Both the position numbers and the translations under genes were made by a program. A stretch of 64,000 bases of DNA. Source: Collinsella sp. 4_8_47FAA. Its GTDB lineage: Bacteria > Actinomycetota > Coriobacteriia > Coriobacteriales > Coriobacteriaceae. The DNA lies in NCBI RefSeq assembly GCF_000763055.1, contig NZ_KN214134.1, forward strand, positions 239,954 to 303,953, in the 5' to 3' direction. Below the pieces are notes generated by a model. It was not told the DNA's origin and did not search any database. It was given only the letters and a program-made list of their open reading frames with translations. Of the stretch, positions 1,580-27,404 are shown one piece after another (position 1 is the first letter of the stretch; the number at the start of each line of letters is the position of its first letter).

Positions 1580-1846
1580 ATGACACCAACAGAGGCGCTT
1601 AGGGAAATGCTCGACCGCTCGGGCATGAGCATGTACGCGCTTTCCAAGGCGATGGGCAAGAGCCGCAACTACATCGGGAACACGCTCAAGCAAGGTTCCG
1701 ACCTCGGAGCGTCCGGCCTGGCCGAGATGGCTTCTCACATGGGCTTTAAGCTCGTGCTCGACGGCTCGGGAGAGCCGATAGAGATAACCGAGAGGAGTGA
1801 CGATGCCGACGATAATCAAGGGCCAGCCAACAAGCGCCGAGGTTAG
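1580..1846 (+). CDS. Small HTH (Cro/C1-type) DNA-binding protein, 88 aa
   Basis: ATG 1580 follows a GGGAGG site. Residues about 12-45 form a helix-turn-helix (YALSKAMGKSRNYIGNTL) of the XRE/Cro-C1 kind, and a short C-terminal region follows with no peptidase or oligomerisation domain. At 88 residues it is Cro-sized. It directly follows the operator cluster, so it probably regulates its own and the divergent promoter. Its 3' end overlaps the next gene by 44 bp, implying coupled expression. The protein family is clear; whether it is repressor, Cro or activator is not. Confidence 0.75.
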   Translation: MTPTEALREMLDRSGMSMYALSKAMGKSRNYIGNTLKQGSDLGASGLAEMASHMGFKLVLDGSGEPIEITERSDDADDNQGPANKRRG

Positions 1847-2513
1847 GCGCAAGCTCAAGGAGGAGGGACGGCCCGTCGTGCTGTCCTGCTCGCTTGGCAA
1901 GGACTCGCTGGCAGCGTGGATCGCGCTTGAGGACGAGGGTATCGAGGTAGTGCCCATCTACTACTGGTCCATCCCAGGCCTTCCGATGGTCGAGCACAAC
2001 GTGAAGACGATCGAGGGCGTTTTCGGCGTGAAGATCCACCAGTACCCGCATCCCAGGTGGTCGAGGACGCTCAACAACTGCGTGTTCCAAAGCCCCGAGC
2101 ATTGCGACGTGATCGAAGCGGCGAACATGCCCGTGTTCGGCTACGACGACATGCGCCCGTTCATCCTGGAAGACCTCGGGCTTCCAGAGGACACGTGGTT
2201 CTGCGATGGCGTTCGCGCCTGCGACAACCCCTACCGCCGCGCGAGCCTCACCAAGCACGGCCTCATGAAGCTCACCACGCGCAAGGCGTCGGTGGTTGCC
2301 GACTGGACGAAATCTGAAGTGATGGCGGCGATCGATAGGCGCGGAATCGGCCTGCCGCCTGATTACGAGTTGTTCGGGCGAAGCTTCGACGGATTGGACA
2401 TGCGATTCATGAAGCCGCTGCGCGAGAAGCGCCCGAAGGACTTCGAGGTGGTCAAGCAGTGGTACCCGTTCATCGAGGCCGACGAGAAGAGGTGGGCGCA
2501 CTATGGGCTTTAA
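1803..2513 (+). CDS. Phage PAPS-reductase/PP-loop ATPase family protein
   Basis: A 236-residue protein starting at ATG 1803, seven bases after GAGAGG; a GTG at 1797 is possible but sits on the ribosome site. Residues 27-36 (LSCSLGKDSL) are the PP-loop that binds ATP-type substrates in phosphoadenosine phosphosulfate reductases and DndC-like enzymes. The body keeps the Rossmann-like pattern and ends with a helical region. Such proteins are frequent in phages; proposed roles are sulfur metabolism or nucleic-acid thiolation, but the substrate is unknown here. It overlaps the next gene by 11 bp, so the two probably act together. Confidence 0.8.
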   Translation: MPTIIKGQPTSAEVRRKLKEEGRPVVLSCSLGKDSLAAWIALEDEGIEVVPIYYWSIPGLPMVEHNVKTIEGVFGVKIHQYPHPRWSRTLNNCVFQSPEHCDVIEAANMPVFGYDDMRPFILEDLGLPEDTWFCDGVRACDNPYRRASLTKHGLMKLTTRKASVVADWTKSEVMAAIDRRGIGLPPDYELFGRSFDGLDMRFMKPLREKRPKDFEVVKQWYPFIEADEKRWAHYGL

Positions 2514-3582: not shown

Positions 3583-3996
3583 GTGAACGACCAGAACCTC
3601 ATCAAGCCCAAGAGGGATCAGACCGCAGAGCAGCGCAAGGCCGCAGCATCGAAGGCCGGCAAGGCGGCTGCGAAGAAGCGCCGCGAGAAGAAGCAGATGC
3701 AGGAGATAGCCAAGATCGTGCTGCACATGCCGTTCGAGGGAACGGACGCGCAGCTGGATGACTTGGAGGGCCTGAGCTTCGAGGACTACCCCGACCGCAA
3801 GCTCACGGTTTCCGAGATCTCGATCCTCAAGGTCGCCAAGAAGGCGATGCGCGGCGATATAGCTGCCATCCAGTTCCTGCGCGACACCGCAGGCGAGAAG
3901 CCCGTGGAGCAAATCGAGGTATCCGCCGACATCGGGGCCGCTTGCGACGAGATCGGCAAGCTCATCGAGGCGAAGCGCAATGCCGACAAGGGCTGA
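3583..3996 (+). CDS. Probable terminase small subunit (KGG-like N-terminus), 137 aa
   Basis: Starts at GTG 3583 with GAGG about 10 nt upstream, right after the previous stop. The basic N-terminus (TAEQRKAAASKAGKAAAKKRREKK) is the Lys/Arg-rich segment typical of DUF5681-like terminase-associated proteins, followed by helices (LTVSEISILKVAKKAMRGD) suited to DNA binding and oligomerisation. Its last 17 bases overlap the large subunit. Small subunits recognise the packaging site. The assignment rests mainly on order and general character. Confidence 0.6.
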   Translation: MNDQNLIKPKRDQTAEQRKAAASKAGKAAAKKRREKKQMQEIAKIVLHMPFEGTDAQLDDLEGLSFEDYPDRKLTVSEISILKVAKKAMRGDIAAIQFLRDTAGEKPVEQIEVSADIGAACDEIGKLIEAKRNADKG

Positions 3997-5257
3997 CCTT
4001 ATCGACCTGGTGTACGACTGCCCCGTTGACATCGCCGTGCGCCTCGGATTCGACAAGCTGACGTCTTTGCACAACGAGTGGATCAAGGACATGGTTTTCG
4101 GTACCGACGACGAAACGATCCAGGCGCACCGTGGCAGCTTCAAGACCACGTGCCTAGGCATCTCGTTCGCGTTTATCATCGTGCTGTTCCCCGGCCTGCG
4201 ATCCATGTTCCTGCGCAAGACGGACGACGACGTGGCGGAGGTCATGGCGGCCACGGCAAACGTGCTGCAAACCGACTACTTCCGCGGCATCGTGCGCATG
4301 CTCTACGGCGTGGAGCTTGAGCTTACGAGGGCCACGCAGTCGTCCGTATCCACCAACCTCAAGCAGGGCGTGTCTGGCGCTCCGCAGCTGCTAGGCCTGG
4401 GATGCGGAGGGTCACTGACCGGCAAGCACGCAGACCGCGTGTTCACAGACGACATCGTGAACGTGAAGGATCGCGTGTCGGCGGCGGAGCGCGAGCGCAT
4501 CAAGCTGATCTACCAGGAGTTGCAGAACATCCGAAACCGTGGCGGGCGCATCTTCAGCACGGGCACGCCGTGGCACAAGGACGACGCGTTCCAGCTGATG
4601 CCGAACATCCGCCGCTGGGACTGCTGGCAGACGGGCCTCATGAGCCGCGAGGAGATCGAGCAGGTGCGGGCCAGCATGTCGCCGTCCCTGTTCGCGGCGA
4701 ACTACGAGCTGAAGCACATCGCCGACGAGGACGCCATGTTCACCAACGCCAAGTTCTTCAAGGAGCCTGAGCTTCTGCGAGACGGCATAGGCCACATCGA
4801 CGCGAGCTACGGGGGCGCGGACTTCACGGCCTTCACGGCCATATGCAACAGGGGCGGCATCTGGTACTGCCTCATCCGCATGTGGCACAAGCACGTGGAC
4901 GACTGCCTGGACGAGATCATCGGGATTTGCAAGGCGCTGCGCATCGGCTCGATCCACTGCGAGATGAACGCCGACAAGGGGTACCTGCGCAAGGGCATCC
5001 TAAAGCGCGGCAGGCCGTGCGTGGGATACCAGGAGAAGGAGAACAAGTACCTGAAGATCAGCACGCACCTTCGCAGCGAGTGGGCGAACGTGCGGTTCCT
5101 TGACTGCGACGAGTACCCGCTTGACGCAGAGGCGCTGAACCAGGTGCTCGACTACAACGAGAACGCCGCGCACGACGACATGCCCGACTCCCTGGCGTCC
5201 GCGATCAGGCAATGGGAGAACCGACCCGGCATAAAGACCTTCAAGGGAGGTATCTGA
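3980..5257 (+). CDS. Terminase large subunit
   Basis: A 425-residue packaging motor ATPase/nuclease. The N-terminal ATPase has a Walker A-like loop (AHRGSFKTT, about residues 49-57), a Walker B (RVFTDDIV) and a coupling motif (STGTPWHKDD). The C-terminal RNase H-like nuclease begins with an Asp-bearing strand (HIDASYGGADFTA, about 273-285) and includes later acidic positions near HDDMPDSLASAI. The length is slightly short but complete. It overlaps the small subunit and is one base from the portal gene, the classic order. Confidence 0.92.
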   Translation: MPTRADLIDLVYDCPVDIAVRLGFDKLTSLHNEWIKDMVFGTDDETIQAHRGSFKTTCLGISFAFIIVLFPGLRSMFLRKTDDDVAEVMAATANVLQTDYFRGIVRMLYGVELELTRATQSSVSTNLKQGVSGAPQLLGLGCGGSLTGKHADRVFTDDIVNVKDRVSAAERERIKLIYQELQNIRNRGGRIFSTGTPWHKDDAFQLMPNIRRWDCWQTGLMSREEIEQVRASMSPSLFAANYELKHIADEDAMFTNAKFFKEPELLRDGIGHIDASYGGADFTAFTAICNRGGIWYCLIRMWHKHVDDCLDEIIGICKALRIGSIHCEMNADKGYLRKGILKRGRPCVGYQEKENKYLKISTHLRSEWANVRFLDCDEYPLDAEALNQVLDYNENAAHDDMPDSLASAIRQWENRPGIKTFKGGI

Positions 5258-20536: not shown

Positions 20537-21262
20537 ATGGCAGACGAAACGCAGATCGCGGCGTTTGTCCTCAACGAGAACGGCAACATCGACCGCGTGA
20601 GAACGACTGACGGCTCTATTTACCGCATCGAGTCAACGCTTGCCGTGGAGGCGGCGGAAGAGGCAAAGACAGCAGCCGCCAACTGCAAGACCATGACGGA
20701 AAGCGCTGAAACGGCCGAGAAAACGCGCGTGTCCAACGAGAACGCTCGGAAAACGGCTGAGACCGAGCGCGGCAACAACGAGACGTCGCGCAAGAACGCC
20801 GAGACGTCGCGCAAGAACGCCGAGACAACACGTCAAGACAACGAAACTGCGCGAAAGAATGCCGAAACCACGCGCCAGAACAACGAGACGAGCCGATCGA
20901 ACGCCGAGATCGAACGCAAAAAGGCCGAAAGCCAGCGCCATGACGAGCATATCGCCGACCAACAGGCATCGAGCAACGCGACCTCGGCGGCAAACGGCGC
21001 GGCATCGCGTGCTGACGCGGCGGCCAACCAGGCGTTGCAGATCGCCAACTCCGTTGCGCAAGGAAGCGCGGGCGATTCGGACATCGCGGCGCTGCGCGAG
21101 CAGAACGCGATCCTGGCAAACATGCTCGCTGAGTCGAGCGGCAAGTTCGTGTTCATGGACGGCACGGTGTACGCGCCGTCTTCAAAGGCAACGTTCGAGG
21201 ACGGAACCGTAAAACTCGGTTCCTCCTGCACGGTATCCGGCACGACCATCGTGCTCGCATAG
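20537..21262 (+). CDS. Tail fibre protein with 7-residue coiled-coil repeats
   Basis: A 241-residue protein with GGAGG ahead of ATG 20537. The N-terminal 30 residues (ETQIAAFVLNENGNIDRVRT) probably attach to the baseplate. Residues about 60-140 are tandem heptads of the form K-N-A-E-T-(S/T)-R and relatives, a long polar trimeric coiled coil. The C-terminal 50 residues are a small beta domain (FVFMDGTVYAPSSKATFEDG). It lies 12 bases before the DGR target, so it likely forms the stalk that presents it. Confidence 0.75.
   Translation: MADETQIAAFVLNENGNIDRVRTTDGSIYRIESTLAVEAAEEAKTAAANCKTMTESAETAEKTRVSNENARKTAETERGNNETSRKNAETSRKNAETTRQDNETARKNAETTRQNNETSRSNAEIERKKAESQRHDEHIADQQASSNATSAANGAASRADAAANQALQIANSVAQGSAGDSDIAALREQNAILANMLAESSGKFVFMDGTVYAPSSKATFEDGTVKLGSSCTVSGTTIVLA
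20750..20940 (+). repeat. Tandem 21-bp repeats in the tail fibre gene
   Basis: Units encoding the heptads above recur with AAGAACGCCGAGAC at 20790 and 20811 (exact 21-bp spacing) and diverged copies on both sides. The stalk length could change by recombination between units. Confidence 0.7.
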
Positions 21263-21274
21263 AAAGGAAAACGA

Positions 21275-22192
21275 ATGGCAAACGTAAACGCCGAGCGCTT
21301 TAACGTGAACGGGGTGAGCCACGAGATCATCGACTCACTGGCCCGCACCAACGCCACCACGGCTCTCAACAACGCCGAGTACAACCGACAGGGCCTGATC
21401 GGCAAGTACCCGGGCCAGTCGCTCGCAACGCTTCTCGCGGGCGAGGTCTCCGGCTCCGCCACCATCTACGACGCGCTGCACAAGCGCGTGCAGGCCGCGA
21501 ACTTCAGCGGCATGCGCGTGGGCGACTACATCGACGTGCCGCTCGTGAGCGCGTCAAACGTGGCGGCCCAGCAGTCCGTGCGCTTCCTGCTTGCGCACTT
21601 CGACCCGTACTACCAGTGCGGCGACAGCGCCAAGGGCCACCACATCGCGTTCATCGCGTCCGCGCCCGTCGCCGTGGCCAAGACCGTCACCGGCGTGGCC
21701 AACGACAGCTTCCTGATGTGGAACACGACCAACACGAACCAGGGCACCGCCGACCAGAAATGCCCCTACCCCAACAGCAACCTCAAGGCGTGGGAGACGG
21801 CCTTCGAGGCGTGCCTGCCCGAGGGGCTGACCAAGTACCTGCTGACCCAGCGCGTCCTGCTTGAGGAGCGGTACAGCGCCAGCGGCGCGCTCAACGACTC
21901 CAACTCGTGGAGCTGGCAGGATATCGGCAAGGTGTTCTCGCTGTCCGAGATGGAGGTGTACGGCTGCCCAGTGTGGGGCACCAAGGGCTACAGCGTCGGC
22001 TTCGACTGCCAGTGGGACCTGTTCAGGGACACCGCGCACCGAATCAACGGAACTCGGTACCCTTGGTGGTTGCGTTCCGTCATGGGTGGCTCGTCGTCCA
22101 GCGTGTGCTGCGTCAGCCACTACGGCCATGCCTCCTGCTACTCGGCGACGGGCGTCTGGGTTCGCCCCCGCCCCGGCTTCCTCGTCGGCTAG
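21275..22192 (+). CDS. DGR-diversified tail receptor-binding protein
   Basis: A 305-residue protein with GAAAGG ahead of ATG 21275. The N-terminal 60 residues are helical; the rest resembles the DUF6273/C-type-lectin-like domain used as a display scaffold by gut-phage DGRs (WGTKGYSVGFDCQWDLF, WWLRSVMGG, GVWVRPRPGF). The last 43 codons are the variable repeat. Relative to the template, residues 263, 276, 279, 281, 282, 283, 287 and 288 are changed (N-P, N-S, Y-C, N-S, N-H, N-Y, N-S, Y-C). These would sit in the ligand-binding face. It follows the fibre gene and precedes Avd and reverse transcriptase. Confidence 0.92.
   Translation: MANVNAERFNVNGVSHEIIDSLARTNATTALNNAEYNRQGLIGKYPGQSLATLLAGEVSGSATIYDALHKRVQAANFSGMRVGDYIDVPLVSASNVAAQQSVRFLLAHFDPYYQCGDSAKGHHIAFIASAPVAVAKTVTGVANDSFLMWNTTNTNQGTADQKCPYPNSNLKAWETAFEACLPEGLTKYLLTQRVLLEERYSASGALNDSNSWSWQDIGKVFSLSEMEVYGCPVWGTKGYSVGFDCQWDLFRDTAHRINGTRYPWWLRSVMGGSSSSVCCVSHYGHASCYSATGVWVRPRPGFLVG
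22054..22181 (+). repeat. DGR variable repeat (VR)
   Basis: Aligned without gaps to 22792-22919, the 128-bp repeat differs at 11 sites: 22061, 22062, 22101, 22110, 22116, 22118, 22121, 22133, 22134, 22137 and 22177. All 11 are adenines in the template (five to C, four to G, two to T). The 108 non-adenine positions are identical. The 3' end is GC-rich (CGCCCCCGCCCCGG), as in initiation-of-mutagenic-homing sites. Confidence 0.97.
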
Positions 22193-22220
22193 CCAGCCGA
22201 GTGCTCTATACTCTGCTTTT

Positions 22221-22245
22221 AGGCGACCGCCTTGCGCGGTCGCCT
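22221..22245. promoter_or_regulatory. Perfect 10-bp hairpin downstream of the VR
   Basis: Arms 22221-22230 and 22236-22245 pair exactly around CTTGC, 40 bp after the VR. DGR retrohoming in the Bordetella phage needs a DNA hairpin just beyond the VR, so this is a candidate equivalent. It could instead be an RNA hairpin in tandem with the next terminator. Confidence 0.55.
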
Positions 22246-22248
22246 CCT

Positions 22249-22272
22249 GCCCGCGAAGCGGGCCGTTTTTTT
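22249..22272 (+). terminator. Rho-independent terminator after the DGR target
   Basis: A 6-bp GC stem (22249-22254 with 22258-22263), a GAA loop and seven T at 22266-22272. It would limit readthrough from the tail genes into avd. Confidence 0.7.
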
Positions 22273-22296
22273 CGCCGCTATTCCCAGGAGGTGCAC

Positions 22297-22767
22297 GTGA
22301 GCGGCGTCTACCAGCGCAACCGCGAGGTGTCCGAGTACAAGTTCTTCACGCAGGCCATCGCCATCCGCGTGGAGGTCAACAAGCTGATGGCGTCGTCCTC
22401 CGTGGTCCCGAAGGCCTACCGGCTGCTGAATGCGGTGCCGACCGTGGAGACGGCGCGCAGCATCGTGTACAACGTCAACCGCGCCGACTGCTTCTACCCC
22501 AACACCTCGTTCAACGCGCTGGAGAGGAAACGCTACCTGACGCTGGCCATAGCTGACTGCGAGCAGCTGATGCTGGACATGCAGTGCCTCATGGATATCG
22601 GCCTGCCCGTGAACGCCAACCGCTTCGAGGAGCTGGCGGCCATGGTCGAGGAGGAGATCAGGCTGCTGAAGGGCGCGCGCAAGAACGTGCGCGTGACGGG
22701 CAAGAAGTCCACCGAGGAGCGCATAGCCGAGGCCGAGGCCGAGCTAGAGCGCCTGCGTTCGCTATAA
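22297..22767 (+). CDS. avd: DGR accessory variability determinant (Avd)
   Basis: A 156-residue protein from GTG 22297 with AGGAGGT five bases upstream. It is all-helical, with the four-helix pattern of Avd: a first helix (EYKFFTQAIAIRVEVNKLMA), a Pro/Tyr turn (SSVVPKAYRLLNAV), an Asn/Arg helix (ARSIVYNVNRADC) and a third (AIADCEQLMLDMQCLMDIG), then a basic tail. Avd forms a pentameric barrel that binds reverse transcriptase and template RNA. It lies between VR and TR, the common order. Its stop codon overlaps a TATAAT box. Confidence 0.88.
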   Translation: MSGVYQRNREVSEYKFFTQAIAIRVEVNKLMASSSVVPKAYRLLNAVPTVETARSIVYNVNRADCFYPNTSFNALERKRYLTLAIADCEQLMLDMQCLMDIGLPVNANRFEELAAMVEEEIRLLKGARKNVRVTGKKSTEERIAEAEAELERLRSL

Positions 22768-22768
22768 T
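22763..22768 (+). promoter_or_regulatory. Possible -10 box for the template-repeat RNA
   Basis: A perfect TATAAT, preceded by GC, overlaps the avd stop codon 24 bp upstream of the TR. No convincing -35 box. A local promoter would decouple TR RNA from the late transcript; this is weak evidence. Confidence 0.3.
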
Positions 22769-22791
22769 GGACGGCGGTCGCGCCTTGTTTA

Positions 22792-22919
22792 TCGGTACAA
22801 TTGGTGGTTGCGTTCCGTCATGGGTGGCTCGTCGTCCAACGTGTGCTACGTCAACAACAACGGCCATGCCAACTACTACTCGGCGACGGGCGTCTGGGTT
22901 CGCCCCCGCCCCGGATTCC
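22792..22919 (+). repeat. DGR template repeat (TR)
   Basis: The non-coding template copied into the VR. It contains 20 adenines, of which 11 are changed in the current VR. Adenines are concentrated in AAC and TAC codons of the matching frame (for example CAACAACAACGG), the usual design giving wide residue choice without stop codons. It lies between avd and the reverse transcriptase. The RNA probably extends into 22920-23122, a 200-bp leader with no gene. Confidence 0.97.
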
Positions 22920-23122
22920 CTTACTGCCAGACCGAGTAGGCCCCAGGGCCGAAAGCAGAGCGCGGAGAGGAAGGAAGGCGCGACCGTCGGGCATGCGCCC
23001 GTAAATACGCACCCCGCGAGGGTGGCCGGACGCTGCTTGCATGGCGCGGCGCTCCGTGGCTTCGCCGCGTTTCATGGCCATACCTCAAGCGGCTGTCAGA
23101 GCCACATTGCAAGCCGTGCGGG

Positions 23123-24364
23123 GTGCCTTCTGTGAACTCCGAGCAAAGGCGGGCGGCGCGCCGGAAGCGCCGCGAGGAGAAGCGGGCCAAGGCAAAGGCC
23201 GAGCGCGTCAAGGCGTGCACCCTTGAGACGGTGGCCGACCTCAACAGCCTGTGCAAGGCCTCCAAGCAGGCCGCGCGTGGCGTCATGTGGAAGGCCTCGA
23301 CGCAGCGGTACATGAAGGACTACCTGCGAAACGCCGTGAAATCGCGCCAAGACCTTTTGGAGGGCCGCGACATATGCCGGGGTTTCATCCGCTTCGACCT
23401 GTGGGAGCGCGGCAAGCTGCGCCACATCAGTGCAGTGCACTTCCCCGAGCGCGTGGTGCAGAAGTCGCTGTCCCAGAACGCCCTCGTGCCCGCGATAGTC
23501 CCCACGCTCGTATCCGCGAACTCCGCCAACATCAAGGGGCGCGGCACCGACTACGCCCTTAAGCTGCTCAAGCGCCACCTGGCCGACCACTGGCGGCGGC
23601 ATGGGCGCGAGGGCTACATACTGCTGGGCGACTTCTCCGACTACTTCGCGCGCATTGCCCACGAGCCGGTCAAGCGGCAGGTGGCCGACGCGCTGCTCGA
23701 CCCGCGCGTGGTCGCCCTTGAGCACCGCCTGATAGACGCGCAGGGCGAGGTCGGCCTGGGCCTGGGCAGCGAGCCAAACCAGATATGCGCGGTGGCGCAC
23801 CCCAACCGCATCGACCACTACGTGGCCGAGATGCTGCGCCCCGAGGCCTACGGGCGCTACATGGATGACTTCTACCTGATCCACGAGTCCAAGGAGTACC
23901 TGCAAGTGTGCCTTCTGCTGATAGAGCACGAGTGCGCGAAGCTCGGCATCGCGCTGAACCCGCGCAAGACCCGCGTGGTGAAGCTGACGCGCGGCTTCAC
24001 GTGGCTGAAGAAGCGCATCTTCTACACCGAAACGGGCCGCATCGTCATGAAGCCGTGCCGCGACTCCATCACGCGCGAGCGACGCAAGCTGAAGAAGATG
24101 GCCCGCATGGTGGCCGAGGGGGTCATGACGCCCGAGCAGGTGCAGCAGAGCTACCAGAGCTGGCGCGGCGGCATGGCTCACTTGGACGCGCACCGCAGCG
24201 TGCTGGCCATGGACGCGCTGTACCGCAGCCTGTTCGAAAATCTCGCGGGGGGGGGGGTTGCTCAATGCAATCAAGCCCGAGAGACGATTCGGGCGGAACG
24301 CCCTCGCCATAGCGGAAGGGCGGCAACTCAAAACGGCGGCCTAGACGGGTCGAAAACGAAATAA
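23123..24364 (+). CDS. DGR reverse transcriptase
   Basis: A 413-residue protein, GTG 23123 or 23132 (no clear ribosome site). A basic N-terminus is followed by RT blocks: HISAVHFPERVVQKSL (101-116), motif 3 LLGDFSDYF with D170, motif 4 GLGLGSEPNQ (211-220, the DGR-type replacement of QGxxxSP), catalytic YMDD (246-249), LGIALNPRKTRVV and FTWLKKRIF. It has no RNase H or maturase domain. It makes adenine-mutagenised cDNA from the TR with Avd. The end is affected by an 11-G run at 24247-24257; as written, the tail is GGGVAQCNQ and onward. With one G fewer it would end LLNAIKPERRFGRNALAIAE plus eight residues, at 24344. Confidence 0.93.
   Translation: MPSVNSEQRRAARRKRREEKRAKAKAERVKACTLETVADLNSLCKASKQAARGVMWKASTQRYMKDYLRNAVKSRQDLLEGRDICRGFIRFDLWERGKLRHISAVHFPERVVQKSLSQNALVPAIVPTLVSANSANIKGRGTDYALKLLKRHLADHWRRHGREGYILLGDFSDYFARIAHEPVKRQVADALLDPRVVALEHRLIDAQGEVGLGLGSEPNQICAVAHPNRIDHYVAEMLRPEAYGRYMDDFYLIHESKEYLQVCLLLIEHECAKLGIALNPRKTRVVKLTRGFTWLKKRIFYTETGRIVMKPCRDSITRERRKLKKMARMVAEGVMTPEQVQQSYQSWRGGMAHLDAHRSVLAMDALYRSLFENLAGGGVAQCNQARETIRAERPRHSGRAATQNGGLDGSKTK
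24247..24257 (+). repeat. Run of 11 G in the reverse transcriptase gene
   Basis: Eleven consecutive G just after the conserved RT core. The length decides which of three frames encodes the last 30 or so residues. It is either a phase-variable tract or a sequencing/assembly indel. Confidence 0.85.
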
Positions 24365-26375: not shown

Positions 26376-27404
26376 ATGAACGGAATAGACATCAGCAATT
26401 GGCAGAACGGCATCAACCTCGCGGCTGTCCCGTTCGACTTCGTTATCTGCAAGGCTACCGAGGGCACGCGCTACGTGTCGCCCGACTGCGACCGCCAAAT
26501 CCAGCAGGCGATCGGTCTTGGCAAGCTCGTCGGCGTGTACCACTACGTCAACGGAGGTGATGCCGAGGCGGAGGCCGAGTACTTCTATGAGCGCTGCAAG
26601 GGCTACGTCGGCAAGGCCGCGTTCTTCATCGACTGGGAGGAGCGGGGCAACAAGGCATGGGGCGACACGTCCTACCTCAAGGCCATGGCAGAGCGTTTGG
26701 CCGAGCTTCTTGGCGTGAGCGTGGATCGCATCGGTATCTACGCATCCAAGAGCGTGTTCCCGTGGGGCCTCACCGATGCTAAGACGTGGGTGGCGCAGTA
26801 CGCCGACATGAATCCCACTGGCTACCAGGACGCGCCGTGGCACGAGGGCGCTTACGATTGCGCCATCCGCCAGTACTCCTCTTGCGGGCGCTTGGACGGC
26901 TGGGCGGGCAACCTCGACATCAACAAGTGCTATATCTCCCGCGCGGAGTGGGAGGCCATGGTGGGCGGCTCCAACGGCGATCCCGACTCGCTTATCCACG
27001 GCATCGACGAGACGCCTGCAGCAGACCTCGCGGCGAAGGTGCTCGCTGGCGAGCTCGGAGACGGCGACGACCGCAAGCACGCGCTGGGCGACCGCTACCA
27101 GGAGGTGCAGTCGCTCGTGAACCACATTCTCACGGCATCCGCCGAGGATCTGGCCGCTGAGACCTGGGCGGGCGATTACGGCAACGGCAGCCGCCGCAAG
27201 GCTGTTTTGGGGCCGCGCTACGACGAGGTTATGGCGGTCATCAACGGGCAGGCCGAAACCGAGCAGGTGTACGTGGTGCAAAGCGGCGACACCCTTTCCG
27301 GAATCGCCTCAAAGTACGGCACGACCTATCAGGATCTCGCCGCCAAGAACGGCATCTCAAACCCGAATCTGATCTATCCCGGCATGCGCCTGGTTGTTTC
27401 CTAG
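26376..27404 (+). CDS. Endolysin: GH25 muramidase with two CW_7 repeats and LysM
   Basis: A 342-residue lysozyme. The GH25 barrel spans about 1-195, with Asp5 in [11 protein letters not shown] and the acidic pair in [11 protein letters not shown]. Two Cpl-7-type wall-binding repeats follow (about 212-248, [20 protein letters not shown]; about 255-292, [20 protein letters not shown]). A C-terminal LysM occupies about 298-342 ([20 protein letters not shown]). It cuts the glycan strand of peptidoglycan. No signal peptide, so it depends on the holin. It starts one base after the peptidase gene. Confidence 0.95.

What the first reader, a model, noticed from the sequence alone, without database searches (positions are those of the whole stretch)
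21275..24364. Complete, apparently active diversity-generating retroelement in the prophage tail region
Seen: VR 22054-22181 and TR 22792-22919 align over 128 bp with 11 differences, all at template adenines; the other 108 positions are identical. Avd and a YMDD reverse transcriptase with the DGR-type motif 4 flank the TR. Known: DGRs (Bordetella phage BPP-1 type) mutate adenines to vary ligand-binding proteins. Inference: the target is the receptor-binding tip carried on the coiled-coil fibre encoded just upstream, so this prophage can change host range. Eight residues are already changed.
Basis: partly seen in the sequence, partly recalled or inferred. Interest (0 to 1): 0.92.

Follow-up and report, generated by a model that had tools for sequence, protein, structure and literature searches.

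The report
Mutator element with slippery enzyme tail
A gut-bacterium prophage carries a standard gene-diversifying retroelement, and its reverse transcriptase ends in a slippery run of 11 Gs that related phages keep in the same place at different lengths, as if a genetic switch chooses the enzyme's tail and perhaps how strongly the phage mutates its own binding protein.

Summary
VR 22054-22181 and TR 22792-22919 match over 128 bp with 11 differences, all at TR adenines (P 7e-11). Avd, RT, a DUF6273 target and a BPP-1-type DNA hairpin after VR complete an ordinary diversity-generating retroelement (DGR) in a Collinsella prophage. The spacer between TR and RT is Rfam RT-2 RNA. Comparison with relatives supports adenine mutagenesis.

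The only G/C homopolymer of 7 or more in the 64 kb window is a G11 inside the RT gene, just after the conserved enzyme ends. Related phages have G7-G13 or C9-C10 at this spot (17 of 206 RT loci, P 2e-24), and lengths differ even between close strains. The tract length decides the reading frame of the RT's tail. In coriobacterial members one frame ends in Ala-Ala, as the ssrA degradation tag does (11/15 GC-rich tract loci against 3/41 controls). That frame shows signs of conservation even where it is out of frame.

I read this as a contingency switch of the RT C-terminus, probably tuning DGR activity (degradation is inferred). The DGR is a known kind; the switch appears unreported in the papers I could search.

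The parts
20537..21262 (+). Coiled-coil, tail-fibre-like protein upstream of the target
   Evidence: ORF; weak PHROG matches to tail fibre / minor tail proteins
21275..22192 (+). DGR target (variable protein), 305 aa, DUF6273 domain at residues 158-298 with VR at its C-terminus
   Evidence: Pfam PF19789 E 2.8e-7, above the curated cut-off; orthologues in relatives
22054..22181 (+). Variable repeat (VR)
   Evidence: 128 bp, 11 differences to TR, all at TR adenines
22185..22200 (+). DNA hairpin TCGGCT-AGCC-AGCCGA just after VR, over the target's stop codon
   Evidence: Found in relatives with different but complementary stems; BPP-1 needs such a hairpin for retrohoming (PMC3240598)
22222..22272 (+). 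Terminator-like hairpins and T7 between target and Avd
   Evidence: Sequence
22297..22767 (+). Avd, 156 aa, GTG start with AGGAGGT ahead of it
   Evidence: No family-model match; predicted helix bundle, mean pLDDT 80; matches 4dwl/8ub7 Avd, TM about 0.6 by query and 0.8 by target
22792..22919 (+). Template repeat (TR), 20 adenines
22922..23146 (+). RT-2 RNA (Rfam RF03077) = DGR spacer region between TR and RT
   Evidence: 139 bits against a gathering score of 40, E 1.9e-32; starts 3-23 nt after TR in relatives
23132..24364 (+). DGR reverse transcriptase (start GTG 23132 or 23123), YMDD, motif LGSEPNQ
   Evidence: RVT_1 E 6.4e-11; PHROG 1423 reverse transcriptase E 3e-65; alignment A1
24247..24257 (+). 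G11 homopolymer just after the conserved RT end; the only G/C run of 7 or more in the window
   Evidence: same place in relatives with G6-G13 or C9-C10
24258..24344 (+). Out-of-frame alternative RT tail (LLNAIKPERRFGRNALAIAEGRQLKTAA*), which another tract length would bring into frame

Best explanation
This is a diversity-generating retroelement of a Collinsella prophage. The RT, with Avd and the RT-2 spacer RNA, copies TR RNA into cDNA with errors at adenines; the cDNA replaces VR at the 3' end of a DUF6273 tail protein, guided by the GC-rich 3' end of VR and the hairpin over the stop codon. The parts are shown; the reaction is inferred from BPP-1. On top of this, a G/C homopolymer placed just after the RT's conserved C-terminal end changes length by slippage, so the RT is made with one of three different tails (C-terminal phase variation). 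In the coriobacterial lineages one tail ends in Ala-Ala like the ssrA tag. I infer that adding or removing it changes RT stability through ClpXP, so that hypermutation of the binding protein is turned up or down reversibly. Tract, position, length differences and alternative tails are shown; reversible switching within a population is inferred; degradation is the least certain step.
For: DGR. Tract position: 17 of 206 distinct RT loci have a G/C run of 7 or more within 120 nt of the RT core end, against 17 such runs in the other 1.6 Mb (0.29 expected, P 2e-24); in the window it is the only one in 64 kb, and in each tract locus the only one. Length differences: close C. aerofaciens-type relatives with near-identical flanks have G6, G8, G8, G10, G10 and G11, and a deleted copy G13, giving three different tails. 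Homopolymer kept while the base changes: sister RTs L094 (G10) and L005 (C10). Alternative tail: Ala-Ala end in one frame in 11/15 GC-rich tract loci against 3/41 GC-rich non-tract loci, Fisher 2.6e-6; one of the 3 is itself a G6 allele. In that frame the changes between L215/L217 and L215/L194 in the alignable codons are all at third positions (0,0,5 and 0,0,4), although it is out of frame in L215 and L194. The host has clpX, and a frame of its tmRNA holds a tag-like NNSSFEPMALAA*. C-terminal phase variation by homopolymers is described in Helicobacter canadensis (PMC2823697).
Against: No reads were available, so within-population length variation is not shown, and a homopolymer length in an assembly can be off by one. 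Six tract loci (L193, L218, L223, L228, L254, L284) have no Ala-Ala frame, so the degron idea does not cover the whole set. Many relatives have no tract and no tail and still show diversified VRs, so the tail is not needed for activity. VR difference counts are similar whether the Ala-Ala tail is in frame (9-16) or not (6-15). The tract loci are related, so the statistics overstate independence. Between the window and L144 the Ala-Ala frame is only weakly conserved (codon position changes 8, 3, 7; last 16 codons 3, 1, 6).
Confidence: 0.7

Rival explanations
1. Plain DGR; the RT's C-terminus beyond the core is unconstrained and the homopolymer is neutral decay at a gene end.
For: RTs without any tail exist and their VRs are diversified. 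[quoted passage not shown]
Against: No other G/C run of 7 or more lies in these loci, so other gene ends lack it. The tract is found as G or C at the same spot in sister RTs. The Ala-Ala frame is kept out of frame with third-position changes in L194/L215/L217.
Confidence: 0.17
2. The tract is a programmed slippage site for transcription or translation: each allele makes a fixed mixture of tails without DNA length change.
For: Long homopolymers can cause polymerase or ribosome slippage (general knowledge), and conservation of an out-of-frame tail would also follow.
Against: Lengths change the genomic frame between close relatives, which fixed programming would not need. Both G and C tracts occur.
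Confidence: 0.2
3. The switch is real but the Ala-Ala tail does something other than degradation, such as binding Avd, RNA or a phage protein; or the frames matter because one reads into the terminator hairpin after RT, as in L218, L223 and L228.
For: Tails in L193, L218, L223, L228, L254 and L284 lack Ala-Ala; one frame of several runs through a terminator-like hairpin.
Against: Repeated LAA/AAA/RAA ends in otherwise diverged tails match the ssrA-type signal.
Confidence: 0.3
4. The window's G11 is an assembly error and the true allele is a constant length.
For: Homopolymers are error-prone in sequencing (general knowledge).
Against: Independent assemblies of different genomes all show long tracts of differing length at this spot, including few-contig genomes.
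Confidence: 0.05

Closest known systems
Bordetella phage BPP-1 DGR (mtd, avd, TR, brt)
   Same: Target-VR-hairpin-avd-TR-spacer-RT arrangement; adenine-only VR/TR differences; Avd fold; hairpin after VR at the stop codon (PMC3240598)
   Different: RT only 25% identical; target is DUF6273 rather than Mtd; hairpin has a 6-bp stem and AGCC loop instead of 7-10 bp and GRNA; tract at the RT end in this clade
Faecalibacterium and gut-phage DGRs with DUF6273 targets (PMC11792537, PMC10743442)
   Same: VR at the C-terminus of a DUF6273 domain in gut prophages; related RT
   Different: RT about 30% identical; the tract and switchable tail are not mentioned in the passages I read
Roseburia phage Shimadzu DGR
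   Same: Closest annotated phage RT (53.6% identity) with an annotated Avd and a tail fibre gene upstream
   Different: No homopolymer; RT ends KGGPQP*
C-terminal phase variation genes of Helicobacter canadensis (PMC2823697)
   Same: Homopolymer near the 3' end of a gene; length changes swap the C-terminus
   Different: Those are bacterial genes with population read evidence; here it is a phage DGR reverse transcriptase, comparative evidence only
ssrA / ClpXP C-terminal degrons
   Same: Tails ending LAA, AAA, RAA or similar
   Different: Encoded in the gene in one reading frame; degradation untested

Membership tests
Diversity-generating retroelement | TR/VR pair differing only at TR adenines | tested here: met
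   11/11 differences at adenines, P 7e-11; same in most relatives
Diversity-generating retroelement | DGR-type reverse transcriptase next to TR | tested here: met
   PHROG 1423 E 3e-65; homologous to BPP-1 brt at 25%; YMDD; motif LGSEPNQ has N where the usual motif has S
Diversity-generating retroelement | Accessory protein (Avd or similar) | tested here: met
   Predicted fold matches Avd 4dwl and 8ub7; no sequence-model match
Diversity-generating retroelement | GC-rich VR 3' end (IMH) and hairpin downstream | tested here: met
   Hairpin 22185-22200 with complementary changes in relatives; stem 6 bp and loop AGCC depart from the 7-10 bp, GRNA pattern of PMC3240598
Diversity-generating retroelement | Structured spacer RNA between TR and RT | tested here: met
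   RT-2 RNA 22922-23146
Diversity-generating retroelement | Target with a C-type-lectin-like variable domain | tested here: inconclusive
   DUF6273 by Pfam, which a paper models as C-lectin (PMC10743442); my own model of this domain was too poor
Diversity-generating retroelement | Mutagenic retrohoming observed | not testable with these tools
   Needs reads or an assay; comparative signs only
Homopolymer-driven C-terminal phase variation | Long homopolymer late in the reading frame | tested here: met
   G11 after the RT core
Homopolymer-driven C-terminal phase variation | Lengths differ between close relatives and change the frame | tested here: met
   G6/G8/G10/G11 among C. aerofaciens-type loci
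Homopolymer-driven C-terminal phase variation | Length variation inside one population | not testable with these tools
   No reads available
ssrA-type ClpXP degron | C-terminal Ala-Ala | tested here: met
   In one frame in 11/15 GC-rich tract loci; in the window it is out of frame at present
ssrA-type ClpXP degron | Degradation by ClpXP | not testable with these tools
   Host has clpX; no assay

The most novel reading that the evidence does not exclude
A contingency locus controls a targeted hypermutator: slippage of a G/C tract in a DGR reverse transcriptase adds or removes an ssrA-like degradation tail, so phage populations hold sub-lines with fast and slow diversification of their binding protein.
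Probability: 0.38. Interest if true: 0.85.

Novelty: new variant of a known kind. Interest (0 to 1): 0.62.

Why it matters
How DGR activity is regulated in nature is described as an open question (PMC12875486). A slippage tract that swaps the tail of the mutagenic enzyme would be a simple heritable setting of mutation rate at one gene: one kind of programmed variation controlling another. It can be tested with existing reads and simple tail fusions. It would also explain why these RT genes look frame-shifted at their ends. Separately, the position of RT-2 RNA next to TR in every case checked gives a likely job (DGR spacer RNA) to an Rfam family known to me only by its name and its nearness to reverse transcriptases.

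Tried and rejected
- Pfam, PHROG and NCBIfam for Avd: no match; resolved by fold.
- Structure of the target: C-terminal domain predicted with pLDDT under 50, so the viral-library matches were not used as evidence.
- A second DGR copy or remote VR in the own genome: only a 36-bp chance-like match on contig C4.
- L144 as a living 'in-frame' allele: rejected, because an in-frame deletion fuses Avd to the RT end and removes TR and the active site.
- ARAGORN's tmRNA tag (ARQPGDFPDTGATSC) was set aside for the frame with NNSSFEPMALAA*; this is my reading.
- Link between tail state and number of VR changes: none seen.
- Read-through into the next gene as the purpose of the frames: no frame joins it except by chance in L111.
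- A viral scan for close relatives of L217 found nothing new.
- Papers joining DGRs with homopolymer phase variation: none found. The 2017 paper that I recall as describing the RT-2 motif was not held.
Full report
Observation. The repeat pair is real. VR 22054-22181 and TR 22792-22919 match over 128 bp; all 11 differences are at the 20 TR adenines (P 7e-11). Eight residues differ. One of the 11 (22177) is the same in all close relatives compared (TR A, VR C), so it belongs to the IMH/IMH* difference and not to recent mutagenesis.

Setting. The window lies in contig C1 of a 2.28 Mb genome whose nearest named relatives are Collinsella aerofaciens and other Collinsella. Phage genes run from terminase (3980-5257) through portal, head, tape measure and tail to a GH25 lysin (26376-27404); host cell-wall and kinase genes follow from 27.7 kb. 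The DGR sits between the tail genes and the lysis genes.

Parts of the DGR. The target is a 305-aa protein with a DUF6273 domain whose C-terminus is VR. Papers report VRs at the C-terminus of DUF6273 in gut phages and model it as C-type lectin (PMC11792537, PMC10743442). A 6-bp hairpin with a 4-nt loop covers the stop codon just after VR, and relatives keep a hairpin there with different complementary stems, as in BPP-1 (PMC3240598). Avd is divergent in sequence, but its predicted fold matches Bordetella Avd and the DGR complex. Between TR and RT lies Rfam RT-2 RNA (139 bits). In relatives RT-2 also starts 3-23 nt after TR, so RT-2 in these elements is the DGR spacer, the part that in BPP-1 recruits RT-Avd and primes cDNA (PMC12875486). 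I could not check whether this identity is already published.

Activity. Of the related loci read, most have a TR/VR pair with adenine-only differences. L093 and L095 share an identical TR, and their VRs differ from it only at adenines (6 and 15 sites). The window's TR has lost four adenines present in the close relatives' TRs (AAT to CAT, AAC to TAC, AAC to GGC); VR shares these letters, so TR was probably rewritten from a VR, or mutated and then copied.

The unexpected feature. The RT gene carries G11 at 24247-24257, right after the conserved end of the enzyme. It is the only G/C run of 7 or more in the window. Relatives have runs at the same place: G8 (L092), G8 (L111), G6 (L095), G10 (L093, L096), G13 (L144), G9 (L003), G8 (L004), G10 (L094), C10 (L097), C10 (L005), C9 (L193), G8 (L194), G9 (L215), G7 (L217), C9 (L218), C10 (L223, L228), G10 (L254), G8 (L284). 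Over 206 distinct RT loci, 17 have such a run within 120 nt of the core end, against 17 in the remaining 1.6 Mb (expected 0.29, P 2e-24). A tree of 69 RTs needs at least five gains or losses, and sister RTs carry G10 and C10. A homopolymer is therefore kept although its base, and so the encoded residue (Gly or Pro), changes. The whole own genome has four places with G9 or more, this one included.

What the tract changes. The run is too late to truncate the enzyme; it selects one of three tails. Present tails differ between close relatives: window and L092 read ..GGVAQCNQ..K*, L093 and L096 read ..GGGCSMQ..SQ*, L095 reads ..GGAQCRP..K*. In coriobacterial members one frame ends in Ala-Ala: LKTAA, LKAAA, LPRAA, LKRAA, LQMAA, VRIAA, LPLAA. 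It is the frame in use in L094, L097, L005 and L217 and out of frame in the other intact elements, the window included. An Ala-Ala end occurs in 11 of 15 GC-rich tract loci and 3 of 41 GC-rich non-tract loci (Fisher 2.6e-6). In L215, L217 and L194 the alignable codons of this frame differ only at third positions although two of the three read another frame now. This suggests that the frame is translated some of the time.

Interpretation. Homopolymer slippage that swaps C-termini was proposed as C-terminal phase variation in Helicobacter canadensis (PMC2823697). The same logic here would act on a hypermutation enzyme. Because the alternative end looks like the ssrA tag, and the host has clpX and a tmRNA frame ending MALAA, I propose that the tail sets RT stability. 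From memory, frameshifts near the end of the phage Mu repressor gene change its sensitivity to Clp proteases, which would be a precedent. This step is inference. Six tract loci outside the main group lack Ala-Ala, and tail-less RTs work, so the tail is regulatory at most.

Limits. No reads, no expression data; tract length in an assembly may be wrong by one base, so the present state of this strain is uncertain. Related loci are not independent. Not finding a paper in the held library does not prove novelty.

Verdict. Known kind of element, confirmed, with a probable new mode of control.

Noticed in passing
window 22792-22919 (TR): This TR has lost four adenines that the close relatives' TRs keep, and VR shares the new letters, which suggests TR was rewritten from VR or mutated itself.
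   Followed up: partly
window 22922-23146; L003, L005, L006, L015, L017, L021, L022: Rfam RT-2 RNA (RF03077) lies 3-23 nt after TR in every DGR checked that has it, so the family looks like the DGR spacer RNA; some related DGRs (L007-L012) do not match it.
   Followed up: partly
L144 (Collinsella aerofaciens BSD2780120875b): Decayed DGR: an in-frame deletion fuses the front of Avd to the end of RT, removing TR, spacer and active site, while the target with VR remains; tract G13.
   Followed up: partly
G000:C3:363234 (L189): G9 tract inside an acyltransferase-like reading frame of the host genome, a possible contingency gene.
   Followed up: no
G000:C1:164059 (L183) and C1:190770 (L185): G10 and G9 runs in the host genome, outside any long open frame or in short ones.
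   Followed up: no
G063:C6:42303-50128 (L111, L109): Two different DGR reverse transcriptases within 8 kb on one Collinsella contig, in opposite orientation, one with the tract and one without.
   Followed up: no
L063, L073, L076, L080, L081: Related DGRs in which one TR matches two VRs upstream, apparently two targets.
   Followed up: no
L218, L223, L228: C-tract RTs in which one frame of the tail reads through a terminator-like hairpin (..RGFLLP).
   Followed up: partly
window 1797-2513: Phosphoadenosine phosphosulfate reductase-like gene at the head of the phage gene block.
   Followed up: no
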